A stretch of 64,000 bases of DNA. It comes from Mercurialis annua. Taxonomy: Eukaryota; Streptophyta; Magnoliopsida; Malpighiales; Euphorbiaceae. Location: the NCBI RefSeq assembly GCF_937616625.2, contig NC_065574.1, positions 186,001-250,000 on the forward strand, in the 5' to 3' direction. A model generated the notes under the pieces. That model saw only the letters and a list, made by a program, of their open reading frames with translations. It was not told the origin of the DNA and searched no databases. Of this stretch, positions 8,700 to 53,819 are shown piece by piece (position 1 is the stretch's first letter; every line of letters starts with the position of its first letter). The position numbers were made by a program, and so were the translations under genes.

Positions 8700-11600
8700 T
8701 CATGACTTCAGGTCTAGCAATTGGTTGACAACAGCTCTCATTGTTGGTCTATATTTTGGTTCCTTCTCGGTGCATTTCATTGCAATGAAAAGCATGCAGG
8801 TGACTTGTTCTGAAATATCCGACTCCACAGTTTCGTCCAATAGACTTGGATCAACAATACTGGTGATTTCTTGTGTTTCACTCCAAATAGATCTAACCCA
8901 TCTTACAATATCCATTTCCTCTGTAAATAGTTTATCTGAAGGCGTTTTTCGAGTTATTAACTCGAGCAAAACAACTCCGTAACTATAAACATCAGATTCC
9001 TTCCCCCTGCCTGCTGTATATGCATTTTCTGCCAATGCAAATATACACTTAATATTAGAAAGCTGAAAATGTATTATGAAGGAAAAATGAACCACAGTTT
9101 GTGTGGAAACTATGTTCCACGGAAACTTGTCAAGTGCTACCTTTTAGTTTCTATTTTTGGAAAGACTTCTGAAATTTTGAAACTTTTTATTTATAACTTA
9201 ATTTAGTGAAATATGTTGTTTCACCATTTTCATTTAGATTTTCTCAGTTTTCGCATAACATAGTGAAGAAATATTAATTACCTGGTGCAATATATCCAAT
9301 TGTGCCAGAAACTGAGACGGATGCTGCTGATGTGGATGAGTCAAGAAGCTTGGCAATACCGAAGTCTGAGATGTGAGGCTCCATTTCAGAGTCCAAAAGT
9401 ATATTTTGTGGCTTGATGTCTCGGTGCAACACAGAAGGGTCACAATCATAATGAAGATATGCCAATCCATGGGCAGTTCCAAGTGCTATATTATAGCGGA
9501 CGCTCCATTCCAACTTTTGTGGTGGACTCGTTGTATATAAAACATCATGAAGACTCCCATTTTCCATGTACTTGTATACAATTAATCCGTAATTCTTTTT
9601 AAACCAAAAGTCTTCCACCTTGACCAGATTTCGGTGCCTGATCTTCTCGATGGTTTGAATCTCTCTGACCATGCTTCGACTTCCATCTCTATGCCCTGCA
9701 AATTCAAGCTTCTTCACTGCAAACACATTGTCTGGGCCCAATACAGCCTTGAAAACAGTTCCATGACCTCCCTTCCCAATTATATATCTGTCATTTAGAT
9801 TCTCAGTGGCTGCCATTATCTGGCAGAATCGAGGCTCATCGTCCTCTTGAATAAGCCTACCCAGTTCCTCCTGACGTCCTTTCCTGCAAAATAGAAACAA
9901 ACAGGCCAATCCAAGAAGCAAGCAGAGACCTAAAGAGGATCCCAGGGCAATCATTGTGATTTCCACCCTACTAAGAGCTTTACCGCTGTTGGATTTATTG
10001 TCACATTTTCTAAAATAACTGATTCCGGTGCAATTTAAATCACCTGACACTGAACAATTGACACAAAGGCCAGGATTTCCCAAGAATGACGACGGGGATT
10101 TATTTAGCATTTCCATCAGTTTTTTGGATATTGGACCAGTAAAGAGGTTGTGAGAAATATTAACTTCCGACAGTGACTGCATTTCATCAAGAACTTCTAA
10201 ACTTCCTGTTAAATTGTTGCTAGAGATATCTAGACTAATCAGGTTGGTTAAACCTATAAGCTCCAGAGGAATGTGACCGAGCAGTCCGTTATCTCTGAGA
10301 CTCAAACCATATCGCAGATTCCTCAGTTCTCCAATGGAAGAGGGTATCTCTCCCACCATCTTGTTTCCACCCATTCGTAATAGGCTTAGCTTTTTCAGTT
10401 TCGACAGAAAAGCCGGAATGCTCCCAGTAAAATGATTCTCTTCTAAAATCAGAGTAGATAAACTCGTCCAGTTACTCAAACTTAACGGAATGGAACAGTT
10501 AAATGAATTGAAACCAGCATCAAATATGTCTAATTTCTTCCACGTTGATAGTTGAGGTGGAAAACAACCTTGCAGATGGTTATGTGCTAGAATCATTTCT
10601 GTGAGATTTACAAGATTACCAAGTTCTGGGGGTATAAAACCAGTAAGCTTATTCATTGAAAAGTCGATGGAAGTGAGATTGGTGCAGTTTCCCAGGCTTG
10701 ATGGAATTTTTCCAGTAACGTTATTATCAGTAATATTCATGTATGAAAGGCTTGGATTTGCTGGAAATTCTGGAAGAACCCCCGAGAGATTATTATGGCG
10801 AAGGATCAATCTCCAAATAGTCGGACAGTTCCCGACATCAGATGGTATGCTACCTTGGAAGTGGTTGTGGCCCAAATTCAGAACTCTTAAACGCTTTCTA
10901 AAACATAGCTGTGGGGGAATTTGACCAGTAAACTCATTATTCATTAGGTCTACTATCTCTAAGCTGCTGTTAACTCCTAAACCTTGAGGTATGTCTCCAA
11001 AGAACTTGTTGTCAAACAGTGTAATACTTTCCAAATTTTTGAGCAATGTCAACTCTAAAGGCAGTTCACCTGAAAGGTTGTTAAAGTACAAAAGGACATG
11101 TCTAAGACTTGGGATTTTCCAGATGCTAATTGGAATCTCACCAGTTAAGTTGTTGCGAAACAATTCAAGGTTCTGTAGTTCACTCAACATTCCCAATTCG
11201 CTGGGAATTTCTCCCTCGAGTTGGTTTCTATATAACTTCAACTCTATCAACGACTTGCATTTCCCAAGTTCGGAGGGAATTCTTCCGGACAAACGGTTTT
11301 CAGTAAGGTAAAGAAGCGAAAGCTTGCGTAGCAGACCGTAAGAAGAAGGAATAGTACCAGTTAACTGGTTGGCAACGATGGCTAACTCTTTTAAGCTACT
11401 ACAGTTGCCCAGTTCCGGCGGCAGAACCCCACTAAAGCCACTGAATGACAAATATAGATACTCCAATTTCTTGCAGTTGCCTGAACCATAATTGATATGA
11501 CCCGCAAGACTGTTATTGCTGACATCTAAAAGAAGAATATTAGCAAGATTATTGAGAGATTCGGGTAAAACCCCGAGGAGAGCATTATTATTCAACTTAA

Positions 11601-12234
11601 GCTCTGCTAGTTGACTGCAGTTCCCTATTGAATTAGGAATTACACCTACCAGCTCGTTATACTCTAACCATAAATACAATAGCTCACTCGAGTTTCCAGC
11701 ATTGCTAGGAATTGAACCACCGAAGGTGTTGTGATCCAAGAAAATAGTGTGTAAACGTGGAATTTGGAAGAGCCAGTCAGAAATTGCTCCACTCAACAAA
11801 TTAGTATGAAGACTGAGCATCCTCAGATTGTGCAGGTTTTGTAAGCTATAAGGTATGTCTCTAACAAAGAAATTTTGAGAAAGATCGAGTGTTTGAAGGA
11901 GAGAACAGTTACTGAGGTGAGAGGGAATGGCGCCAGAGAAACTATTATTGCTTAAATTAAGGGTTTTCAAATGGGTTAGGCGTGCAATTTGGGGCCCTAA
12001 TTGACCAGAAATTTGATAACCAGGAAGACTTAAAGAGGTGACGTGATGGGTGGTATTACTACAGTGAATGCCAAGCCATGAACAAGGGGTGGAATCAGAA
12101 GGATTCCAGCTAGAGGTTAGAGAAAGAGGGACAGATGTCCAGTGGGTGATGAGGGATAATAAAGCTAACCCGTCCGAACTCAAACCAGAAACATCAAGAA
12201 TCAAGAAACTAAGCACCAAAAAAACAGGATTCAT
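8700..12234 (-). CDS. PEPR: LRR receptor-like kinase, Pep-receptor (PEPR) type
   Basis: There are two exons: 9282-12234 and 8700-9028. They join as GTIGYIAP-E-NAYTAGRGKE in a phase-1 junction, giving about 1093 residues (PEPR1/PEPR2 are about 1100). The first ATG is at 12232-12234; codons upstream in frame contain no ATG. Order: signal peptide (MNPVFLVLSFLILDVSG), N-cap Cys pair (CSWLGIHC), about 26 LRRs, a transmembrane helix (MIALGSSLGLCLLLGLACLF), then a kinase with glycine loop GKGGHGTVF, Lys in FAVKKLEF, HRDIKPQNIL (RD type) and DFG. The kinase strongly recalls Arabidopsis PEPR1/2, plasma-membrane receptors for Pep danger peptides that signal with BAK1. Pep binding here is inferred. All key kinase residues are present, so it should be functional. 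Confidence 0.88.
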
Positions 12235-12399
12235 GCTTTCAATCAACAAAATAGTAATACGTAGTGAAGTTTGCACTTACTTTGCAAAATTTGAAAATAT
12301 TGGTGCTGGCCGGCTGTGGAGGAGGCGGGAGTTGTTTGTATTGGATTTGGACATCATCGCAAAGGAGTACTTATTATTTCCAAACAATTTCTTTTAGTA

Positions 12400-13473: not shown

Positions 13474-16400
13474 ATGAGTGAATCTGATTTAAATAAAACT
13501 GTAACTCAAATCATAAGGCAAATGAGAAAGCCTGATGATAGTGATGATCAATTGGAGAATGTAGTTGTGTCTCCTGTTCGGAAAAGTTTAAGAATCAAAA
13601 TGTCAAAGCCAGATGTTGTGAGTAAGACTGAGGAAAAAGCAATTGTGAAGAGAAAAGCAGTAAAAAAGTCTTCATCTGGTAAAAGAAAAGCAGAACCTGT
13701 TATATTAAAAAGAGATATTAAGATGAGAAGGCTTGGCAGTGATAATTTGAATAAAGATGATTCTCTTCAGGTATTTTAATATTATTTTTAATTGGTGATA
13801 ATGTTATGACAATGTTTTTATATGTTAGTTGATAGCATGATGATAGTAGATAAGGCTGTTACATATCAGTTGAAAATATGATGGTATTTATATGTTAGTT
13901 GATAATATAATGATACATTTGCTAATATGATAATATGATGATAATTTATATATTGTAATATGATTATAGTTGATATGATTAATGGTGTTGTCATGTGTTA
14001 GTTTATATTATGATAATATGCTGATAGTGTTTATGATAATGTTTTTATATGTTAGTTGATAACATGATGATAATAGATGATTCTGTTATATTTTAGTTGA
14101 ACAAAATGATGGTTTTTTTTTATGTTAGTTGATAATATGATGATACAATGCTAACATGATAATATGATGATAATTTATAATATGCTATATGATTATAATT
14201 GATATGATTTATGGTGTTGTCATATGTTAGTTTATATTACGATAATATGCTCATAGTTTTATGATTTAGTTCTGACTGGAATTATAATTTGATGGTAATT
14301 TGTATACTACTGTTAAGATAATATGATGATTTTGGTAGATCTCATTATGATAATGGTAACTTTTTTTGTTTGATAAATACTGATCTGATTATATTATTTT
14401 ATGTACTGGTATGATTTTATTATGATAAGTGTATGATAATTAAATGATAATAGCTTTTTGAGACATTAACTTATGATTTTTAAGCATGATTATCTGATTA
14501 CAGAAGATAGATACTGTGATGATAATGTTATGATAATGCATTTTATTTTTTGTATTTACTACTGTTTACATATTTTTAATACTTTTACTTTTTATTGCAG
14601 AAATTTGATCTGTTAATTGCTCCTACTAGTCGGTTCGTGGGAAAAGTTGGCAAGGCTTGTTCCATTGATGTGATAACTAATATTATTTCCAAGCTTAGTC
14701 CTAATCAAATGTCTATATTCAAGAGCAGTAGGTTTGGTGTGTTTCTGGGATTAGGAAAGGATGTATTGAGTCTTAGGCTTATACATTCTATACTGCTTAG
14801 GGAAGTTCATTATCCAGATATGTCCGAGCTTTGGTTTAATTTTGGTTCGCGTAACATGCGCTTTAGTCTGTATGAGTTTGGATTGGTTAGTGGTCTTGTT
14901 TGCGGTGGGGATGAGTCTAGATTTTCCAATTACTGTGATGGTGGAATCTTTTTTGGTAAATTCTTTGGCGATGATAATAGAATTACTCGTCAGGTTATAG
15001 AAGCTAAGTTTAATGATGCAGTTTGGGATAATGATGATGATGCTGTGAAGTTTGCAAAGCTGTATTTTGTGCAATATTTTCTGTTGGGCAGTCTTGAAAG
15101 TACATTGGTTGACAGTCGTTTCATTCACTTGTTGGACTGTCTAGATTTTGATGATTTTCCGTGGGGAAAATATTCATTTCAGTTATTCGTCCAGTCTACA
15201 AAGAACAAACTTTGGACATTTCTGCAGGCATCAAAACAATCTACGTTTTATCGACTGTATGGTTTCCCCCATGCCATTCAATTTTGGTTTTATGAAACCT
15301 TGACTACAGTTCCTGAATTTTTGTGTTCGTTGAGCAATGCTGCTGCGTTTCCTCGGTTTTTGCGTTGGAGTCCGAAGAATATTAAAAAGATTCAGAACTT
15401 TGATTTTAAAGTTTATGATGATCCAACTGAAAAGGTATAAATATTTTGCTTTAATTTACTTTTTAATTGTTTTTGCATTTTTAATCATTATATTGTTTAT
15501 TGTATATTATATTGTAGGTTAAAGCTGGTCCAAATATTAAAGCAACTGATTTCGAGTTAAGTCAGAATATTGTGACTGGACTCAATCATCAACACTTCAT
15601 TGTTGCTTCCAATTCGGATGACGAAAGTATTTTGGAAGTTGCTAAGTCTGCTTGCTTTGATTTTGTGAATGAACTTAAAGATTTGGTGTTTGACAGTGGT
15701 GTTGAATATTCTGATTTGGAGTTAGATATTCGAAAGCAGATTTATGATTCTATTGTGAATTTTGAAAACAACAAATTAACTGATATTTTCAAGGATAATT
15801 CTGGAGAGGTATGTTCTTATGTTTTTTTTATAATAAATATATGATAATTTCTTTTTTTATAATATAATATGTTTTTTTATTTTTTGTGAATGTAGGATGA
15901 AAATGTAGAAGAACAGATATATTCTTCTGATAATGATGTTGGTGATAGTTCTTCTAAGGATAATGATAAATCTTACAAGGAAGAAACTGAAAATGAAGAG
16001 CAACAATTTAATAATGAGGATGTTACTGTTTTAGATGGTGGAGAGGTAAATTTTTACTTGTAGTTTTTATGAATATGTATACTAATTAATGATAAGTGTA
16101 TGATAATAGTAATTTATGTTAATTTCTAAATTCAGATGTTATTTAAAATATGTTGATAATAATAATATGATGATACTGTAATGATAATATGATGATACTG
16201 TTATTTTTCTGATATTTTTTAATGAAAGTTTTTTCTGTCTATAGATTGATGCTGAAGTACATGATCAATCCATTGCTGAGAATGTTTCTGGTCCTGAGAA
16301 TGTTTCTGGTCTTGAGAGTGGAAAGGTAAATTTTTGTTTTTTTATAAGTTTCTATTATATGTGATAACGACATGATAATGTGATGATAATTGTGTGATAA

Positions 16401-19379
16401 TTATTAATGATAATTTTATGATAATACAATCACATATTTGTGTATTTCTTTTTAGATTGATGCTGATGCTAATGCTCAAGATATTACTGGTGATGTTGAG
16501 ATGGATGGTGTAATGAATTATAATTCTGATAACTATCACCAAGAGTCTTCAGAGGTAGATAAAGCTAATGAGAATGTTAATGTTAATGTTGGGGTACATG
16601 ATCATGTTGATCCTGCTGATGATCAATCCATTGAGCAAGTTGCTGATTTTGATAATGCAAAGGTAAACTGTTTATTATATATGCTTTATTGTTTTTTTAA
16701 TTGTCATTGTTATAGTTTTTGATAAGCATATGATAATGTCTTTATATATTGTACTATTTTTTATTTTAATGATAACATGATGATAAGTATATGATAATTT
16801 GATGATAATTTAATTTTATACTTATATCTGTGTTTAGATTAATGTTGAATCCAATGCTCCAATTATTGCTGGTGAAGTTGCTGCTGATGTTAATATGGAT
16901 GAGCGATATGAAGAAGTTGGTGTTGCGGGTGGGGCTGTTGAGAAGGATACTGGTGGTATGGTAGAAGTTAATATTGTTAATGAAAATGAAGTTTTGGGAA
17001 TTGGAGAGGCTGCTGGAAAAGATGGAGGAATGGGAGAGCTTGTAAGTAATGTTAATGTGCGTAGAACGGAATGTTTTGGATTTGGTTTTGATGTTATTGG
17101 TTCTGGAAGGGAATTGTCACAAAAGAAATATGTAATTGAGATAATATGATAACTGTTAAATACATTATAATTTTATGATAATAATATGATAAATGTATCA
17201 TAATTGTATGATAATCTTATGATAATTGTATGAATCATAGTAAGTGTATGATAATTGTATGATAATCTTATGATAATAATATGATAACTGTATCATAATT
17301 GTGTTTTTTGCTTTAACAGAATGTTAACAAGGATGCTAATGAAGATGGTGATTCAAATTTAAAAAAACTAATGCAAGATGAAGTTGATAAGCTTGGTGAT
17401 ATCTGCAGTGATGAGTTTATAGTAAATCCATCTGATGTTGCTGCTGAAAATGTTATTGTAGCTGTTCCTTCTGAAAAGGCATCATTACAAAATGTTAACT
17501 CTCAATCGGATGAGATAGCTGACCTGACTTCTTCTGAGGCAGATATATTGAAGATTGTTAATACAATGTCTGCTTTTATTCCTGCTGAGGTATTTATTAA
17601 ACAAATTTAGAATTGAGTTTTTTTTGTTTTTGTTACAAATATATATTTATTTGTGTACTTTTATATGCAGAAACAGTTGACTGAACCGGCTGATTTAGGT
17701 GAAAAACTTGATTTACCTAATATCATAGCTAAAAATGATGCAATAGTTGCTGTTCCGAAAAGTAGACAAAAAGTAATATACTTTATCATTCTTTTAATAA
17801 GTATCCTGTTTTGTTTTGTTTTTTCGATTTTTCTAATTTTTTTATGTATTTGTAACAGCTTGTTTTTAAAAGGAAACAAACTCTGAATCAGGTAGCAGCT
17901 GGATATGCACTTCTCGAAAGAGTGAAGAATTTAGATGCGCCTGAAAAAGTTGCAGCCGTTCGGAATGCTTTCGTAAATCATTGTTCTTTGTTGATTGAAA
18001 GTGTTCATGATATGTGTAATCAGTTCTGGCTTTCTGAATTTAATGATTGGATTGAAACTAATACATATAAGAAACCACATCCATGGTAAGTTAGTTGTTA
18101 TTTGATTATTTTTATAATTTTTTATTGCTTATATTAATTGCTTTGAATACTAATTTTGCTTTAATTTTATAGCGGTGAAATTTACTATCCGAGAGAAAAG
18201 ATTTTACGGCCAGGATTCAGACTTGGTGGTGAGGGTATAACTATAAAAGATTTCTTTCATAAGCTGAATACACCCGGTGGTTATTTGGAATCGAGTGTAA
18301 GTAACATTTTAAATTTATATTTTTTTATTATGATAAATACATGATACTGTCATGATAAGTATATGATAATTATTTTTATTTTCATTAATATACTGATAAC
18401 ATTATAAATATATATTATTTATTATGATAAATAAATGATACTGTCATGATAAGTATATGATTACAAGCTTTTAATTTATTTTTGTGAACTTGGTATGTAT
18501 ATTGTTATAGTGTTGTTTTATGATAAGTTTATGATAATACTATGATAAGTAAATATTATTGTTATAGTCTTTTCTTACATTCAGTTTGTTTATTTCTTCA
18601 GCATATTGACTATTTGTTTGCATACCTGAGGAAGAAGTGTAAATTTCTGAACAATAATTACACGGTTTGTGGAAACTGGTTTGACCAGTACATTCAAAAC
18701 GGGTATAAACTGTACTTGGAGACTCAGAATCTTATTGAATTACCACAGTTTGAAGCAATCTACAATTTTATAGTTGGAGAGGATGGACTTTATAAGAGGG
18801 CCTGGGGTGATGTCAAGCATGTGCTATTTCCAATTCACCGTAAAGTTGACGGCGAAAATAATGACCATTTTATTCTTGGAAGGTTAAGTTTTGATGACAG
18901 AAATTTTTATGGGTATAACTCTTTGAGAACTGACTTATATGACGAGTTTGCACGTAATGCTATTACTGCATATTCAACGTTGCTGCCATTAATATTGGAA
19001 TGTGTTGGATTTTATGATCGTGCTGATATCAACTTCTACTCGGATCATTATATTGGAAAGAATAAAAGTGATCCCTTTTCTTTTTCGTTTGTAGAAGATG
19101 TTCCTGTTCAACAAGATTCGTAAGTATTTTTTGCTTATCATTAGTTGTTACATTGTTTTTATTTAGTAGTTTTAAATTTTAAATTTATATTAACATGTTA
19201 TTTAAAACTTATGCAGTGATTATGGTGTGTATGCTGCTGCTTTTGCTGAATATCTGATTGAAGGTGAATGTAGTCCTAGGGCTCTGCGTATTCAGCAAAT
19301 ACGTAACAGATATGCAGTTAACCTTTACATGTATGGTAGGTGGAAGAACAAGACTGGTTATATTTCTGAAGAAGACTAG
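13474..19379 (+). CDS. MULE-borne DUF1985 / Ulp1 (C48) protease-like protein, 13 exons, catalytic residues replaced
   Basis: My exon model is 13474-13770, 14601-15434, 15518-15808, 15896-16045, 16245-16325, 16456-16662, 16838-17131 (or 17041), 17320-17589, 17671-17772, 17859-18085, 18173-18296, 18602-19119 and 19217-19379. It gives about 1155-1185 residues with no stop. Exon 1 is basic and NLS-like. Exon 2 is a DUF1985 domain (LYEFGLVSGLVCGGDES). Exons 3-9 are an acidic linker of phase-0 exons. Exons 10-13 form the Ulp1 C-terminal domain: WGDVKHVLFPIHR, catalytic His in NDHFILGRLSF (18866-18868), FYGYNSL with Asn (18917-18919) where the family has Asp, and QQDSDYGVYAAAFAEYL with Tyr (19221-19223) where the family has the catalytic Cys. 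The fold may persist but peptidase activity is unlikely. An additional 5'-UTR intron (about 13048-13460) is inferred. Confidence 0.75.
13771..14600 (+). repeat. TGATAA-rich intron 1 of the ULP-like gene
   Basis: The intron is dominated by imperfect ATGATAAT/GATGATAA words. It includes two near-copies of a segment of about 235 bp (from about 13820 and about 14045) that share a TTATATGTTAGTTGATA block. The same word family recurs in introns at 15809-15895, 16046-16244, 16326-16455, 16663-16837, 17132-17319 and 18297-18601. Confidence 0.7.
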
Positions 19380-19837
19380 TTGTAATTTGTTTATTTCTGG
19401 TAAAATTTAGATGTTTTTGTAAATGTTTTTTTGAACAATTATTGTAAGACAATATCTTTTTTAATATGAATTGTTGATTTACAGAATCTGTTTTTTTTAT
19501 ATATGATAATGTTATGATAATCTGTATGATAATCATATGATTACTCTATGATAATCATATGATAATGTAATTACAGATGTGTATCAGACTTATAGAAGAA
19601 CTAATTTAATTTGATAAGTATATGATAATTGGTCATTTTAAGTTTTTAATTGTGTTATACAGATAAATATATGCTAAGGATGTGACTGAAGAGATTGCGG
19701 TGTATCCTGGAGTATCTTCATTTTGATCATATGTAATAGATAACCCGTTAATATTTTAATGTACGTTGTTAGTAGATGAAAATTGTAATTGATAGCTGGT
19801 ACATTGTTTTGATGGTTTTATTTTTGTATGATTAACA

Positions 19838-20415
19838 TATGATAATTCAGTGAGAAATGTATGATAATCTGTATGAACCATTTATTGTTTTTATGATGAC
19901 TCTTTTTGCAGACTATTATATGATAAATATATGATAAGGTTATGATAATTGTATGATAATGAAGACAGAATGATAATTGTAAGTAACAATTTCAACTTTT
20001 ATAATATTTTTTAATAGGATCTGATAAGTACATGATAATCTAATGATAATTGTATGATAGTGTTGTTTATTTCACCTGACCAATGATTCAATTATGAATT
20101 TTTTTTATGATAATAATATGATAATATATGATAATTCAGTGAGAATTGTATGATAATCTGTATGACAACCATTTATTGTTTTTATAATTGCTATTTTTAC
20201 AGACTATTATATGATAATTATATGATAAGGTTATGATAATTAAGACAGAATGATGATTGTAAGTAACAATTGTTTAACTTTATAATATTCTTTTAATATG
20301 ATCTGATAAGTACATGATAATCTAGTGATAACTGTATGATAATGTTGTTCATTTTACCTTATCAATTATTCAATTATGAACATTTTGTTATGATAATAAT
20401 ATTGATAATATATGA
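19838..20415. repeat. Two tandem copies of a roughly 289-bp TGATAA-rich repeat between the convergent MULE genes
   Basis: Copy 1 starts at 19838 and copy 2 at 20127, both with TATGATAATTCAGTGAGA. They share in order a TTTATTGTTTTTAT block, CAGACTATTATATGATAA, AAGACAGAATGAT, GTAAGTAACAATT and TGATAAGTACATGATAATCT. The array lies between the 3' ends of the ULP-like gene and the transposase. It could be the shared 3' flank or terminator region. Confidence 0.75.
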
Positions 20416-20551
20416 TAATTTATATGACAATATAATAATTGTATGACAAATAATACAGTGAATGATAAGAAATTTATTAATTGAAAAATAGTACAGTAAA
20501 TGTTTGAATTGAACACATAACAGTTCTATGATTGAAGAACACATAACAGTT

Positions 20552-23500
20552 CTATGATTTTTTTGGTATACCTCTGCATGTTTTACGGTTATGCCCATAA
20601 AAGCCACATCTGTTACACTTGTTTTGAGTCTTTTGTTCGACTGAACCTTTGATTCTTCTCTTTTTTGGCCTTTCTACTTTTATTCTGCCAATATCTGAGG
20701 GGATATTGTATGACAAATAATACAGTTATATCTTCAATATCTGAGGGGATATCCCATGTGTCTTCTTTACCAACTGGATATACAATTTCTTAATATGTAG
20801 CAAACATTTCTTCATTTCTGAAGTATTTTGAGCAATATTCATGTGGGTCTTGGTGCTTCTCATAGCATACAGCTGTAGCATATTTACAAGGAAGCATATC
20901 TATTTGAAATTTGTTACATGTGCAAGTCCTTTCCTTCATGTTAACTGTATAAGTGTCTTCCAATTCAACTACACTGAAAATGAATTCATTTGTTGTTCCA
21001 TTCACCTGATAACCAGAATATAATGTTCATATTAGAATAATAATATGTGTTATGATAAGTGAATGATAATTTAATGATACTCATATGATAATGTAAAATA
21101 TATTTTATTTAATTCATCTGATAATCTGAATATAGGATTCAATATAGTATCATGATTTTTATGATATCAGTATGACAACATGTGTGTATGATAACTGAAT
21201 GATAATTAATGACAGTTTGATGATGATGCAAAATATAAATAATGATGATATAATCAGATTAATAAGTCAAAAAAATAAAGATTTACCTTGAGTTGTAGGG
21301 ATTCTAAATAATTTTCTCTAAGAAGAGTTTCATATTTAGTAGACAATACTGTGAAAGTTCCTTTTGCAAGATTTTTGTTGTTGCAGCTCCATCTTTGAAC
21401 AAGGCTTCTTAAGTATTCCATAATCATTGTAACTGGTAATTCTCTTGCTCTGTTAACTGCTGCATTGAGTGATTCTGTTGTATTAGATGTCATAATATTG
21501 TATCTTTTGTTCAAAGAATGTGAAACTGCCCACTTTTTAAATTCTATCCCCTTGAGATATTCTGTAACTTTTGGATTTGTGTTGCTCAGATCTGTCATAT
21601 GAATATCGAATTCAGTTTTTGTATATGCTCTTGCTGCTGTCATGAAGATATCTTTAATTTATTTATGTTTTTTTTGAATTTGTACTTCACATTTTGCAGT
21701 AAATGATAGATGCAAATGTCATGCTGAACTTTTCCTTCAAACACACTCTCTATCGCCTTTTTGATGCTGTCATGTCTGTCAGAAATTATACACATTTCTT
21801 CTCTTATCCCAAAAATAGTTTTGATGTTAGAAAAAAACCAATTCCATGATGCATCATTTTCTGAATCAGTAATTGCAAATGCAAGTGGGAATATTTTTAC
21901 TGCAATTAAGAATAAAAAAATTAATATTATTTAACGATTTAAGATAATGATAATGTTATGATCATCTGATGATAATGTTATGATAATATAAAGATAAACT
22001 GTAATATAATGATACAGTTTATGATGATGGAAAAAAAAGAGAATGACAATTATATGATCATTTGATGATAATAGGATTATACAATTTATGATAATATAAT
22101 GATAAAGTTTATGATAATGACAATTATATGATCATCTAATGATAATAGGATGATACAGTTTATGATTATACAATGATACAGTTTCTGATAATGTGATGAC
22201 ACAACTAAGATAATATGATGATAAATATAGTATTCTTACCAGCTGCGTTATGAGTTGAAGCTGAAAAAAGAGTACCTCCATATGAACCTTTTAAAAATAT
22301 TCCATCAACAATCATAATAGGTATACAGTGACTCCATCCAGTTATTGAAGCTTTCAGTGACATAAATGCATAGAGAAATGTATCATCCACATCTCTTTTT
22401 ATATTTACAAATGAACCTGGATTTGTTTGCTTTATCATGTGCAAGTATCTTGGTAGTTGAGCAAATGAATTTTCTGGTTTCCCTCTTAAAAGCTCCAGTG
22501 CAATTTCTCTACATTTCCATGCCTTCCAGTAATCCAACTTAATGTGATACTCATTTCTCATATCTCTGATTATGTCATTAGGTGTATAAATTGTCTTGAT
22601 ATCCAAAAGATTTGGCTTTATGATTTTGGCTATGGTCTTTGAGCTGACATACTTATTTTCTCCCATTATTTCTGCCAAAGAACATGTATGAAAATTATTA
22701 AATTTTCGCACTTGAAACATTTTTGTATGTCCAACTCTTTATGCATAAAAATTCCAATCAAAAGAGTCATCGATGCATTTTAGCCGGTACTGTCTTTTGC
22801 AGGATTTTATCACCTGTTATTTTATCAGTTACAGATAAGATAAGCATATTATCAGTGTTGATAATCGTATGATAATAAAATATATGATAAGCTGATAATG
22901 ATATATAAAATACTTTTTTTTTAAAATTGTGTAAAATAAAAGTTTATTTAATATTTACCTTGTATTGAAAATGTTCTGATAGTCCATACATACTCATATC
23001 TGTTATTAGTGTTTCTTTGTCTATGAATATACCCCTTTCTTCTATTTTCTGATTTGCTTGTATTTTTCCAACATTAATTTCTTCAACATCTTCTTCTTGA
23101 AGATTATCTTGAAGGTCGCAAAGAAGATTGACATATTCAATCATATCCAAATTTGTGTTAGATATTTCCTTTGATACATAGGACTGTTCATGCAGCTGTG
23201 ATATGTTGTCTTCATAAACCAGGCTTGAACTTTTTTCTTTATTGGCAGCTGATGATGATGATGATTCCAGTAACCTGTTATATTCTGCCTCATTAAAAAT
23301 AACACAAATTGGATATTTTGTGAAATTATTTTCCTTCTTCTTTAATACCATATAAAATCTGAGACTTGCATCATCTCTAATTTTTATTGGAGGATAATCT
23401 TCACTTATTAAATATTGTATATCTAACTGAATTATACTTTCTTGTAGTTGCAATCGTTGATAGATTGTTTCAGTAAAATCTTTGAAAGTGCAGTCTGTTT

Positions 23501-23591
23501 CCAACAAAAGTCTCAATATCATGAAGTCAGTATACTTTCCAGCTTCAGTCCATTTTCCATTATATTGCATTATCACTTGAATATTGTCCAT
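20552..23591 (-). pseudogene. MuDR-type MULE transposase, broken
   Basis: I assign four exons: 22959-23591, 22240-22813, 21287-21899 and 20552-21005. The N-terminus (MDNIQVIMQYNGKWTEAGKY) is the MuDR-type domain. Then come a FAR1/MuDR zinc-binding segment, a DDE nuclease with PIMIVDGIFLKG, ISDRHDSIKKAI and NTTESLNAAV for the three acidic residues, a SWIM finger (CTCNKFQIDMLPCKYATAV, with Tyr at 20880-20882 where His is expected) and a CCHC knuckle (CNRCGFYGHNRKTC). Breaks are an in-frame TAA at 22739-22741; a frame change beside an A8 run (21668-21675) with a TAA at 21659-21661; a TAA at 20790-20792; and a 46-bp tandem duplication at 20689-20780 that shifts the frame. It cannot make a full transposase. 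Confidence 0.85.
20689..20780. repeat. 46-bp tandem duplication in the transposase last exon
   Basis: The sequence starting CAATATCTGAGGGGATAT occurs at 20689 and again at 20735. The spacing of 46 bases is not a multiple of three and shifts the frame ahead of the CCHC knuckle. Part of the duplicated unit (TTGTATGACAAATAATACAG) also occurs at about 20433-20453. Confidence 0.8.
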
Positions 23592-23593
23592 TT

Positions 23594-25065
23594 CTGCAAT
23601 TATAAATAGATAAGATAAGTAACATGTTGTGATAATGAGTTGATAACATATTAATACCTATCAACACAGTGATAATTAGTTGATAACATGTTGTGATAAT
23701 GAGTTGATAACATGTCGATACCTTTCATATAAAAAGTAGGAGTGTTCTGTTATCATGAGAGTATACTTTTATATGAAAGGTATCAACTCATTATCACCAT
23801 CAATATATTATCAACGCATTATCATTTTATCAACACATTGATAATGAGTTGATAACATGTAGTGATAATGAGTTGATAACATATTAATACCTTTATCAAC
23901 GCATTATCATTCTATCAACACAGTGATAATGAGTTGATAACATGTTGTGATAATGAGTTGATAACATATTAATACCTATCTACACATTGATAATGAGTTG
24001 ATAACATGTTGTGATAATGAGTTGATAACATGTCGATACCTTTCATATAAAATTTAGGAGTGCTCTGTTATCATGAGAGTATACTTTTATATGAAAGGTA
24101 TAAACTCATTATCACTATGAATGTATTATCAACGCATTATCATTTTATCAACACAGTGATAATGAGTTGATAACATGTAGTGATAATGAGTTGATAACAT
24201 ATTAATACCTTTATCAATGCATTATCATTTTATCAACACAGTGATAACGAGTTGATAACATGTTGTGATAATGAGTTGATAACATATTAATACCTATCTA
24301 CACAGTGATAATGAGTTGATAACATGTTGTGATAATGAGTTGATAACATGTCGATACCTTTCATATAAAATTTAGGAGTGCTCTGTTATCATGATAGTAT
24401 ACTTTTATATGAAAGGTATCAACTCATTATCATTTTATCAACACAGTGATAATGAGCTGATAACATGTAGTGATAATGATTTGATAACATATTAATACCT
24501 ATCTACACAGTGATAATGAGTTGATAACATGTTGAAATCTATCAGCATGTTATCAACTCATCATCACAACATATACTCTCATGATAACAAAGAACTCCTA
24601 CTTATACTTGAAATCTACAACATGTTATCAACTCATTATCACAACATATACTCTCATGATAACAAAGAACTCCTACTTATACTTGAAAGCTATCAACATG
24701 TTATCAACTCATTATCATAACATATACTCTCATGATAACAGACTACTTCAACTTATACTTGAAGTCTATCAACATGTTATCAACTTATTATCACAACAAA
24801 ATTTTCAATATGTTATTAACTCATTATCAAAATATACTATCATGATAACATAACAGAGAGCTCCGACTTTTTATATATCAACTGATTATCAAAATATACT
24901 CTCATGATAACAGACTACTCAAACTCTTGAAATCTATCAACATATCATCAACTGATTATCACACAATTCAATATCACTCGCAGATACGACACAATTCTAT
25001 GCACATATTCTGACAGTTATCAAAATATCTCAAAAATTAGAAAACAGTTAATTACCTTGAAGAAT
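23594..25065 (-). repeat. Higher-order tandem repeat filling the transposase 5'-UTR intron
   Basis: The intron runs from a donor at 25065 (CTTCAAG|GTAATT on the minus strand) to an acceptor at 23594 (TTGCAG|AA, then ATG). It is almost entirely built of the words GATAATGAGTTGATAACATG and their inverse. A longer unit recurs every 318 bp: the marker CATGTCGATACCTTTCATAT begins at 23711, 24029 and 24347. From about 24530 to 24960 the words are in the opposite orientation (ATGTTATCAACTCATTATCA), so the intron transcript could fold into a long hairpin. Confidence 0.8.
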
Positions 25066-29598: not shown

Positions 29599-31343
29599 CT
29601 ATAATGAATGACCTGCGCATCACGCGCGGGTCATTCTTAACAAAATTCAGATGCACCTTTTGGTGCACCTGACACATTTTTTTTTATTTTTTTTATTTTT
29701 TAATATAAATTAAATATTTATATATTCATTTAAATTGTATAACAAAGTTATTTATTATATTTGAATTTTAAAAATATTAATTTAATTTAAATTTTATAAA
29801 TATAAATATATTACTCTTTTTCTTTTATATCTCTGATATATTTTTGATATGTCTCTCATATACTGTATAATATATTTTGCCGATATATATATTCTTGATA
29901 AATATTCGATTGTTCGAACTTTTTTTCTTATTTTTTTATACTTTTATTACACATATTTTTTTAATACTTATTTGATACATTTTTGACATGTGTCGAATTT
30001 TTTTTATATATATTACATGTATATCTTTTATACATATTTAAATAAATCTCCGATACATGATTGATACATTTTTAAAATTCATTTAATAGATACATCTCTG
30101 ATACATTTAATTGTAATTCGAATATATTTTCAATACATCTCTGATACATAATTTATACATGAGAGATACATATTTGATACATTAATTGAATTAACTGACT
30201 AATTCGATTGGTTCGTTTTTATATTTAGAAAAGTTTATAAACATATATGCAATAATACTAATTAAAATGAACCAAATATTTATTGTTTTATATATATTTG
30301 ACTGGTTTATTTTTATGATTTGACCGGAAGCCCTAGGTGGAAGGAAGGGAAAAGACGAGTAGAATTGCAAAATATTCGATAAGTATTTGATACATCTCCA
30401 ATATATATATATTTGATGCATTCAGATACATATGTGATATATTTTTGATACATAATTTATACGTGATATTTATCAAAAAAAATATTAAACATGATAGATA
30501 TATTTTTTAAATGTACTTAATAGATACATCGCTGATACATAATTTATACATGATAGATACATTTTTTAAATGTATTTAATAGATACATCGCTGATACATA
30601 ATTTATACATGATAGATACATTTTTTAAATGTACTTAATAGATACATCGCTGATACATAATTTATACATGATAGATATATTTTTAAATGTATTTAAATTG
30701 ATACATGATAGATACATTTTTTTAAATGTACTTAATAGATACATCGCTGATACATAATTTATACATGATAGATATATTTTTAAAATAGACTTAATAGATA
30801 CATCGCTGATACATAATTTATACACGATAGATATATTTTTAAATGTATTTAAATAGATACATGATAGATACATTTTTACTAAATACATACATGGTATATA
30901 TTTTTTTAAAATGTATTTAATAGATACATCGCTGATACATATTTTATACATAAAGATATATTTTTAAAATATATTAAATAGATAAATTGTTAATATAAAT
31001 TTTTAATTATTTTATTTTATATTTTTAAAATTTAGTTAATTGTTTTAAATATATTTATATTTATATTTTTAAAATTTAATTATTATTATTAAATATATTT
31101 AAATTGAAATTAAAATTCAAATTTATATTTAATAAATAAATTTTTAATATAATTTAATATAAAATATTTATATTTAAATAAAATATTTATTAAAATAGAA
31201 AGAATATTTCTTTTAAAGCAAAGACTCATGCATCAGTTAATAAACTGATGCATGAGTAAGCAGGGCTGACCCGCGTCAGCCCTGCATGGCCTGACGCGCG
31301 TCAGGTCAACACATCAGACCTGACGCGCGTCATGTTATAATAG
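29599..31343. mobile_element. Unclassified element bounded by GC-rich hairpins
   Basis: The outer ends CTATAATGAATGACCTGCGC and the inverse right end CTATTATAACATGACGCGCG are similar. The left edge carries hairpins at about 29609-29633 and 29649-29670. The right edge carries perfect hairpins at 31224-31257 and 31260-31285 plus palindromes at 31290-31305 and 31321-31332. Between them is very AT-rich DNA with a tandem array. No coding sequence was seen. Confidence 0.45.
30440..30960. repeat. 59-bp tandem repeat (GATACATCGCTGATACAT units)
   Basis: The marker GATACATCGCTGATACAT starts at 30533, 30592, 30651, 30738, 30797 and 30923. Three consecutive copies are exactly 59 bp apart, and the others are interrupted by degenerate copies. 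Short open frames in this array are repeat artefacts. Confidence 0.85.
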
Positions 31344-51706: not shown

Positions 51707-53797
51707 TCACCAAAAATCACGGCAAGAACAAGATCCGTCCTTGAAATGGTGGAATCTAAAGGAATCTCTTACAGTGATGGGCATGTCGACGATTTTGGCT
51801 ATTAACTTGATAGCATTATGACAGTCCCCACATATCCTCAAATTCTTGAACACTCTAATTGTCGACTTTCCTCCCGAGTTCAGTATCCCAAAGGCAACTG
51901 CCAGCCTTTCACTATGGCTACAAAGAGCTGCTTCTCTTTGCTCTTTGTTTAGATTCTGTAGAGCAAAATCAGCGTCAGGCTGATACCCACTTTGCCTCAT
52001 CTTCTCACCCATCTCCTCCAAAAATCTATACACCATTTCACTCTGTTCATAACATTTATCTCCAACAGTAAAAGAATATACCTTATTTTTCACTTGAACC
52101 CAACTACGCCCTGGTGTTTTTGCAAGTCCTTTGTCTCGCATCTTTTTTCTTATTTCTGACGCTTCAACCCACAGTTTGGCAGTAACCAAAATGTTGGATA
52201 ATAGCACATAATTTCCAGGGTTACGTGGTTCGATCTCAAACAGCTTACTTGCTGCTACTCTCCCCAAATCCACATTTTTATACACTCTACAAGCCCCAAG
52301 CAACGCTCCCCAGGCAGCAGCTGTTGGTTCTATAGGCATTTTCTGGATAAACTCATAGGCTTGTTCTAGCCGACCAGCACGGCTTAGTACATCAACCATG
52401 CACGAGTAATGATCTGCCTCCGGAGTTATTGAATGTCTGGAACCCATTGAATGGAAAATCAAAAGACCTTCATCAGCAAGCTGAGAATGGCTACAACCCG
52501 ATAAGACACCTACAAATGTAACGGAATTGGGTTTGACCCCGATGGCCAACATTTTGTGGAAAAGCATCAATGACTCTCCTCCGTTCCCATGCATCGAACT
52601 AGCAATGATCATGGTGTTCCAAGCAATGACATCTTTTGTTAGCATCATATTGAAAACTTTTCTCGAAAATTCCAAATCCCCGCACTTGGCATACAGCAAA
52701 ACTAGAGCTGTTGCTATTGTTATGTCTTCAATAAAACAGGTCCTAAGGGCGTAACCATGAATCTCTTTGCCACCCTTGAAGCTTTCCAAATCTGTGCAAG
52801 CAGGTATGGCACTAACGATTGTGATCTTATTGGGTTTAAACCCTGAATCTTGCATTTTACAAAATATTTCCAATGCCAATTCATGTTTACCATTCTGCAT
52901 ACAACCACTAATTGCAGCATTCCATGAAGCTTCATTTAGCTTGAAACCTTCCTTTCTCATTTGATAAAACAAAGCGAGACCCTTGTCACATTCTTTATTC
53001 GAGAAGTACATTGTTAACATTACATTGCATGAGACAACATCACACTGATACATACTATTAAACACAAACCTGGCTTGCTTAAGTCTTGAACAACTAGCGT
53101 ACATGTTCATTAGTGCACTAGTCGCAAAAACATTCCCATCCATTCCATTCCTAAAAACAAACCCATGAATCTCTCTTCCCAATTTCACATCCTTCAGGTC
53201 TGTACAAGCAGGTAAAAGCGATGAAACTGTCACCGAATTAGCTCTAATCCCATTCAACCCCATCTCTCTAAAAGCTAATATTCCTTGTCTACACATGCCA
53301 CAATTAACATAGCAAGAAACCATACAAGTCCAAGAAACAACATCTTTAACAACCAAATTGTCAAAAATACATCTAGCTCCATCAACAGACTTACATTTCC
53401 CATACATATCAATGAAAGCATTACCTAACAAAAGATCTTTGTTAAACCCGAAACGAATTGCATGGTTATGTATCTCTTTAGCCTTGACAAGATTACCAGA
53501 AGCTGCACAAGCCTTAGCTACTGATAGTAACACGACTTTATCAGGTTTTGCATGGCGCGACAACAATGTGGAGTAGATATCTATGGCTTTCTTAGGAAAT
53601 CCATGTTGAGTATGGCCTGAAATTAAAATGGTCCATGTGGGCAAGTCTGGGTCAGGAATTTTATCGAACAGGAAGCGTGCATGTTTTAAGTCACCGGAAT
53701 ATAAACAAGACTTTATTAGTTTGATGCTCTGATGAGACTGAAAATTTGTGGGTATCATGTGATTTTTGAGGTTTGATTTGCTTTTCATAATACTCAT
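51707..53797 (-). CDS. PLS-class pentatricopeptide repeat protein with DYW domain
   Basis: A single exon encodes 696 residues; the first in-frame ATG is at 53795-53797. About fifteen PPR units of the P, L and S types run from residue ~25 (DLKHARFLFDKIPDPDLPTW) through VSWTCMVSCYV and AWNTMIIASSMHG. They are followed by E/E+ motifs (AWGALLGACRVYKNVDLG; TPGRSWVQVKNKVYSF) and a complete DYW domain with the cytidine-deaminase-like zinc residues HSERLA and CGDCH, ending CSCRDFW. DYW proteins edit C to U in mitochondrial or plastid RNA. The target, and the organelle, cannot be read from the sequence. Intronless structure is normal for the family. Confidence 0.92.
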   Translation of the reverse strand: MSIMKSKSNLKNHMIPTNFQSHQSIKLIKSCLYSGDLKHARFLFDKIPDPDLPTWTILISGHTQHGFPKKAIDIYSTLLSRHAKPDKVVLLSVAKACAASGNLVKAKEIHNHAIRFGFNKDLLLGNAFIDMYGKCKSVDGARCIFDNLVVKDVVSWTCMVSCYVNCGMCRQGILAFREMGLNGIRANSVTVSSLLPACTDLKDVKLGREIHGFVFRNGMDGNVFATSALMNMYASCSRLKQARFVFNSMYQCDVVSCNVMLTMYFSNKECDKGLALFYQMRKEGFKLNEASWNAAISGCMQNGKHELALEIFCKMQDSGFKPNKITIVSAIPACTDLESFKGGKEIHGYALRTCFIEDITIATALVLLYAKCGDLEFSRKVFNMMLTKDVIAWNTMIIASSMHGNGGESLMLFHKMLAIGVKPNSVTFVGVLSGCSHSQLADEGLLIFHSMGSRHSITPEADHYSCMVDVLSRAGRLEQAYEFIQKMPIEPTAAAWGALLGACRVYKNVDLGRVAASKLFEIEPRNPGNYVLLSNILVTAKLWVEASEIRKKMRDKGLAKTPGRSWVQVKNKVYSFTVGDKCYEQSEMVYRFLEEMGEKMRQSGYQPDADFALQNLNKEQREAALCSHSERLAVAFGILNSGGKSTIRVFKNLRICGDCHNAIKLIAKIVDMPITVRDSFRFHHFKDGSCSCRDFW

Positions 53798-53819
53798 CAA
53801 GTTTGAACCACTTCTTCAA

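What the first reader, a model, noticed from the sequence alone, without database searches (positions are those of the whole stretch)
18602..19379. MULE-borne Ulp1-like protein keeps its reading frame but has lost the catalytic Cys and Asp
Thirteen exons and about 1,170 codons remain open. Yet in the C48 signature the catalytic Cys is Tyr (19221-19223, TAT, one transition from TGT) and the Asp is Asn (18917-18919, AAC, one transition from GAC). His and the oxyanion Gln remain. Seen directly: the codons. Inference: selection or chance kept the frame while activity was lost, so it may act as a SUMO/ubiquitin-like binding pseudo-peptidase. The transposase on the same element has at least three stops, so the two genes have decayed unequally.
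Basis: partly seen in the sequence, partly recalled or inferred. Interest (0 to 1): 0.75.

Follow-up and report, generated by a model that had tools for sequence, protein, structure and literature searches.

The report
VANC-type anti-silencing gene in a transposon
This is a plant jumping-gene's copy of a known kind of protein thought to keep the element from being silenced; one of its two supposed active-site losses is the usual state of its family, and the other looks like an ordinary mutation in an ageing copy, so the finding is mostly ordinary.

Summary
The reading changes. Asn is not a loss: 47 of 50 readable C48 loci fetched from the same genome have it, as do 3 of 3 annotated Mercurialis sisters covering the site, and clan CE allows Asp or Asn (PMC12445089). 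Cys-to-Tyr is private: 4 of 4 sisters and 44 of 45 readable loci keep Cys. The exception, L019, is a separate Cys-to-Tyr in a young subfamily drifting near neutrality. The gene has DUF1985 plus a C48 tail, as reported for KIU/VANC anti-silencing proteins of VANDAL-type MULEs. Its element's non-coding DNA is packed with TATGATAAT-like units, mostly one strand, 11 bp apart, like VANC target arrays. The transposase has four lesions by my reading. Best reading: a VANC/KIU gene of a VANDAL-like MULE, very probably Mercurialis annua; this copy lost its Cys during decay. I found no evidence for a selected pseudo-peptidase. Its closest DNA sisters could not be searched, so its own dN/dS is missing.

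The parts
13474..19379 (+). VANC/KIU-like gene, 13 exons, 1,155 aa
   Evidence: Spliced model without internal stop
14601..15434 (+). exon 2, carries DUF1985 (PF09331, residues 164-297)
   Evidence: Pfam E 6.6e-24; 79% identical to P0002
15896..17041 (+). exons 4-7, acidic variable region with similar exons (looks like tandem duplication)
   Evidence: Direct repeats D5 and D6; 31% identity to P0002
18602..19119 (+). exon 12, C48 domain with His (18866-18868), Asn at acid position (18917-18919), Gln (19109-19111)
   Evidence: Pfam C48 over exons 12-13
19217..19379 (+). exon 13, end of C48 domain; Tyr at the Cys position (19221-19223)
   Evidence: sisters have Cys
13771..14600 (+). intron 1 array: 18 TGATAA, all on + strand; 229-bp unit x2.1
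17042..17319 (+). intron 7 array: 9 TGATAA on +; 11-bp unit x12.7
18297..18601 (+). intron 11 array: 9 TGATAA on +
19380..20549 (+). intergenic array between the two genes: 32 TGATAA on +, 1 on -; 282-bp unit x2.1
23593..25000 (.). distal array beyond the transposase start: 41 on +, 28 on -; 318-bp unit x2.6
20550..23591 (-). broken MULE transposase (MULE domain, SWIM finger; CCHC-like knuckle seen by eye); limits approximate
   Evidence: Pfam MULE E 8.5e-16, SWIM E 1.3e-5; two stops, a frame change and a partial duplication

Best explanation
The gene is a VANC/KIU-type anti-silencing gene (DUF1985 plus a C48 tail) of a VANDAL-like Mutator element, very probably in Mercurialis annua. Shown: the domains, the open frame, the gene order, and 11-bp TATGATAAT-like arrays, mostly on one strand, concentrated in the element's non-coding DNA. 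Inferred from characterised VANCs: the protein binds those arrays and removes silencing marks from copies that carry them. The C48 tail in this lineage has the set His, Asn, Gln, Cys; this copy lost the Cys privately, most likely by neutral decay around the time its transposase failed. Whether the remaining protein still binds its arrays is open.
For: DUF1985 E 6.6e-24 and C48 above cut-off; MULE transposase with SWIM on the other strand. TGATAA per kb: VANC introns 22.6, intergenic 28.2, transposase introns 30.2, distal 49.0, against 2.3 and 0.9 in the two sets of exons and 1.1 in the other 52 kb; + to - counts 53:2, 32:1, 21:2 although the transposase runs the other way. Six of six VANC introns of 130 bp or more hold 4-18 copies; six of six under 100 bp hold 0-1. 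41 of 99 successive spacings are exactly 11 bp; at most 10 in 200 fifth-order Markov surrogates. Conserved ends and a variable, repeat-bearing middle. Literature: VANC21 binds a 9-base motif arrayed in one orientation in non-coding DNA, and VANCs carry DUF1985 (PMC5735166, parts 1-3 of 6 read); Ulp1-bearing VANCs are called KIUs (PMC13317346, passages). Cys kept in 4 of 4 sisters and 44 of 45 readable loci; Asn in 47 of 50. Near-neutral drift in a young related subfamily: 26 nonsynonymous to 10 synonymous distinct changes in 18 copies, where 2.5-3.4 to 1 is expected without selection.
Against: No binding, methylation or expression data. Six related stretches holding both DUF1985 and C48 exons have no TGATAA array, so the pairing of motif and protein rests on this one element. 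Element ends and target-site duplication were not resolved. In the distal part the motif is on both strands (41:28). The motif holds stop codons, so its rarity in exons is partly forced. The closest DNA sisters of this copy were not found, because the genome search did not complete.
Confidence: 0.78

Rival explanations
1. Selected pseudo-peptidase: the frame was kept because a catalytically dead C48 tail binds a ubiquitin-like protein.
For: Frame fully open while the transposase has four lesions; the chance that all four fall in the transposase is 0.025, a post hoc figure. Changes on this copy's branch still avoid constrained columns: 11 of 121 against 16 of 62, p 0.004.
Against: Tyr is private: 0 of 4 sisters and 1 of 45 readable loci, that one in a distant subfamily. 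The branch shows no sign of extra constraint: private changes 27 versus 15 for P0001, p 0.09, and 3 of its 11 changes at otherwise invariant columns are radical. No expression or binding data.
Confidence: 0.1
2. The TATGATAAT arrays are a minisatellite that spread in the element and have nothing to do with the protein.
For: Tandem Repeats Finder sees head-to-tail 11-bp units and larger duplications; six related stretches lack them.
Against: Present in six of six VANC introns of 130 bp or more, three transposase introns, the intergenic part and beyond, mostly on one strand except in the distal part; this matches the described layout of VANC targets (PMC5735166).
Confidence: 0.17
3. A host-domesticated gene that outlived its transposon.
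For: Intact ORF next to a dead transposase.
Against: Element arrays still present, many related C48 copies in the genome (137 matches), peptidase Cys lost; all four protein relatives returned are Mercurialis annua, so no orthologue elsewhere was seen, within what those searches reach.
Confidence: 0.04
4. The Tyr codon is a base-calling error.
For: A single base; cannot be checked without reads.
Against: The assembly has long contigs (eight seen of 42-76 Mb), the frame around it is clean, and other private radical changes occur in the same domain.
Confidence: 0.03

Closest known systems
VANC21 / VANC6 of VANDAL21 (Hiun) and VANDAL6, Arabidopsis
   Same: DUF1985 protein, variable repeat-bearing middle, short motif in same-orientation tandem arrays in non-coding DNA of the same element
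   Different: Motif is TATGATAAT-like here, not YAGTATTAY or AGTTGTCC; a C48 tail is present; transposase is broken; binding not shown
KAONASHI / KIU genes of non-TIR MULEs
   Same: C48 (Ulp1-like) domain in a VANC-like gene, opposite in direction to the transposase
   Different: This copy lacks the Cys; the acid position was not compared with Arabidopsis KIUs here
Cellular ULP1/SENP SUMO proteases (C48)
   Same: C48 profile match and residue order His, Asp/Asn, Gln, then the Cys position
   Different: Asn rather than Asp, Tyr in place of Cys, no C48 structure found by sequence among solved structures

Membership tests
VANC/KIU of VANDAL-type MULEs | DUF1985 domain | tested here: met
   E 6.6e-24
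VANC/KIU of VANDAL-type MULEs | lies on an element with a MULE transposase | tested here: met
   PF10551 E 8.5e-16, SWIM E 1.3e-5 beside it; joint membership inferred from the shared arrays, element ends not resolved
VANC/KIU of VANDAL-type MULEs | Ulp1/C48 tail (KIU) | tested here: met
   28.5 bits over cut-off 20.7 for the last 270 aa; not listed in the full-length scan
VANC/KIU of VANDAL-type MULEs | dense same-orientation motif arrays in the element's non-coding DNA | tested here: met
   mixed orientation in the distal part
VANC/KIU of VANDAL-type MULEs | no or short terminal inverted repeats, 9-bp target duplication | tested here: inconclusive
   no clear long terminal repeat in the comparisons run (25 of 178 pairs shown); no convincing duplication
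VANC/KIU of VANDAL-type MULEs | protein causes loss of DNA methylation on copies with its motif | not testable with these tools
   needs plants
Active C48 peptidase | nucleophilic Cys | tested here: not met
   TAT at 19221-19223
Active C48 peptidase | acid residue Asp or Asn | tested here: met
   AAC at 18917-18919; clan CE order His, Asp/Asn, Gln, Cys (PMC12445089, passages)
Selected pseudo-peptidase | inactivated site shared by several copies under constraint | tested here: inconclusive
   Cys in 4 of 4 sisters and 44 of 45 readable loci, which speaks against it; DNA of the copy's own subfamily was not searched

The most novel reading that the evidence does not exclude
A natural separation-of-function: a KIU whose peptidase is dead but whose DNA-reading part still works, so that anti-silencing by this class does not need peptidase activity; with a target array phased at 11 bp, about one helical turn, letting proteins line up on one face of the DNA.
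Probability: 0.13. Interest if true: 0.6.

Novelty: new member of a known kind. Interest (0 to 1): 0.32.

Why it matters
VANC proteins and their motifs co-evolve, and what the captured Ulp1 domain does in them is said to be unknown (PMC13317346, passages). The element supplies a candidate motif in a plant outside Brassicaceae, and a naturally Cys-less copy that could help ask whether the peptidase is needed. As a claim about lost catalysis the finding itself is small: one residue is usual for the family and the other is a private change.

Tried and rejected
Rejected: double loss of catalytic residues (Asn is the usual family state). Structure prediction of P0001 and P0004 with alignments of 3 and 4 sequences gave mean pLDDT 32.9 and 34.8; too poor for a fold search, so none was run. 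Sequence search of solved structures: the window piece matched only two AlgQ1 chains at E 4.8 and 5.7, the sister profile nothing. Target-site duplication and terminal repeats: no convincing pair. Rfam: no match in the window at gathering scores. A k-mer look at ten of the 28 loci then held found no TGATAA array; six of the ten held both DUF1985 and C48 exons. The third protein search was used for shorter gene models and added one sister, P0004. Papers asked for and not held: Sasaki 2022 and Fu 2013; Hoen 2006 and van Leeuwen 2007 are known to me here only through citing papers.

Full report
What is there. A 13-exon gene on the plus strand (13474-19379) encodes 1,155 residues without an internal stop. 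Pfam finds DUF1985 at residues 164-297 (E 6.6e-24); the last 270 residues match Peptidase_C48 above its cut-off (28.5 versus 20.7 bits), though the full-length scan did not list it. On the minus strand (about 20,550-23,591) lies a MULE transposase with a MULE domain and a SWIM finger. By my reading it carries two in-frame stops, one frame change and one partial duplication of about 46 bases (exon limits set by eye, no intact relative at hand), against none in the longer gene. The chance that four lesions all fall in the 2,289-nt transposase rather than the 3,468-nt neighbour is 0.025, computed after seeing the result.

The active site. Four annotated relatives were found, all Mercurialis annua: one search gave 3 of 293 candidates (E up to 0.001), one search gave 2 of 662 (E up to 10, one being the query itself), one search gave 2 of 482 (E up to 10, one already known). 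Cys is present in 4 of 4, and Asn in 3 of 3 that cover the site; the P0002 model skips it. P0001 and P0002 are 97% identical there, so these are about three lineages.

The same genome. The genome search answered once: 451 Mb in 55 contigs, window at C52:186001-250000, 137 C48 matches among 150 scored of 257 candidates. Two contig lengths (74,042,164 and 41,825,000) nearly equal those of the contigs bearing the annotated Mercurialis annua relatives (74,045,953 and 41,830,924), so the host is very probably that species; this is inference. I read 52 loci (8 given by the search, 44 picked by me from its match list), none of them a close relative of the window copy (exon 12 identity 24-44%). The acid position reads Asn in 47, Asp in 3 (L039, L047, L048), and was not read in 2 (L005, L052). 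The nucleophile reads Cys in 44 of 45 readable loci and Tyr in one, L019; 7 were not readable. Many of these loci are near-identical copies, so the counts are not independent, and picking from profile matches favours intact ones. L019 belongs to a subfamily about 99% identical in exon 12, so its Tyr arose separately. Among 18 such copies, 36 distinct exon-12 changes split 26 nonsynonymous to 10 synonymous with no stop, where 2.5-3.4 to 1 is expected without selection (kappa 4 to 1); counted per copy over 19 copies the split was 66 to 25. L010 (cut short) and L012 (divergent) were left out of the 18. Single copies thus drift nearly freely. Clan CE peptidases use His, Asp/Asn, Gln, Cys (PMC12445089, passages read). 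So Asn is ordinary, and Tyr is a private change of a kind that also appears in a drifting copy elsewhere.

Constraint on this copy. On its branch, 11 of 121 columns constant in P0001, P0003 and P0004 changed, against 16 of 62 less constrained ones (p 0.004; for P0001, 5 of 115 and 10 of 56, p 0.007). Much of its history was thus under constraint. Its private changes are 27 to 15 against P0001 with P0004 as outgroup (p 0.09), and 17 to 15, 14 to 11 and 21 to 23 in three other triplets; 3 of its 11 changes at otherwise invariant columns are radical, one being the Cys. A recent onset of decay fits, but is not proved. No dN/dS for this copy could be had.

The arrays. TGATAA stands at 22.6 per kb in the gene's introns, 28.2 in the intergenic part, 30.2 in transposase introns and 49.0 in the distal part, against 2.3 and 0.9 in the two sets of exons and 1.1 in the remaining 52 kb of the window (transposase exon limits approximate). 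The 55 copies in the gene's introns compare with 13.5 on average and 29 at most in 300 second-order surrogates. Orientation is 53:2, 32:1 and 21:2 in favour of the plus strand, whichever way the gene runs; the distal part is mixed, 41:28. Six of six introns of 130 bp or more hold 4-18 copies and six of six below 100 bp hold 0-1. Spacing is exactly 11 bp in 42 of 113 successive plus-strand pairs; in joined long non-coding parts 41 of 99, with at most 10 in 200 fifth-order surrogates that hold about as many motifs. Larger tandem duplications overlie this, and exons 4-7 resemble one another. The motif contains stop codons, so its rarity in exons is partly forced. Six related stretches with both DUF1985 and C48 exons have only 3-5 plus-strand and 1-4 minus-strand copies in about 7 kb, so the array is not general to KIU genes of this genome.

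What it is. VANC21 of VANDAL21 binds a nine-base motif, arrayed in one orientation at high density in introns and intergenic DNA, and induces loss of methylation; VANC6 has another motif; the proteins have DUF1985, conserved domains and variable repeat-bearing regions (PMC5735166, parts 1-3 of 6 and passages read). Ulp1-bearing VANCs are called KIUs (PMC13317346, passages); the ULP domain lies opposite to the transposase in KI-MULEs (PMC2528002, passages); KIUs are thought unlikely to act on SUMO (PMC6117577, passages); VANDAL transposases carry SWIM and CCHC motifs and the elements lack or have short terminal repeats (PMC6446971, passages). The window gene matches in domains, direction, exon-level conservation (DUF1985 exon 79%, middle 31%, C48 73% of aligned residues against P0002) and motif layout. 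The step from motif to binding and demethylation is by analogy.

In print? Searches for VANC with catalytic cysteine (15 of 121 papers listed), DUF1985 with C48 (7 of 8 listed) and VANC with 11-bp or helical spacing (6 of 6 listed) showed me no paper on a Cys-less KIU or an 11-bp phased array; these are partial listings, most subscription papers are not held, and Sasaki 2022, the most relevant paper, could not be read.

Noticed in passing
13771-25000: TATGATAAT-like units, very often spaced exactly 11 bp (about one helical turn) and mostly on one strand, fill the long non-coding parts of the element.
   Followed up: yes
L019 (G000:C2:20184100-20190700): A separate Cys-to-Tyr change in the C48 domain of a young copy of a distant KIU subfamily.
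   Followed up: partly
L009-L028: A KIU subfamily with copies about 99% identical in exon 12 (L012 93.8%) on eight large contigs, drifting near neutrality: looks like a recent burst of amplification.
   Followed up: partly
9274-12276: Large LRR receptor-kinase-like ORF on the minus strand (recognised by eye), ending at a stop inside the kinase part (possible intron or pseudogene), next to the element's left side.
   Followed up: no
51707-53815: 702-aa ORF on the minus strand that looks like a PPR protein with a DYW-type end (recognised by eye, no search).
   Followed up: no
30485-30984: 59-bp tandem repeat, with a 156-bp higher unit.
   Followed up: no
P0003: Annotated gene model joins an RPS2-like LRR region to a C48 tail, perhaps an annotation fusion of a resistance gene with a transposon copy.
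   Followed up: no
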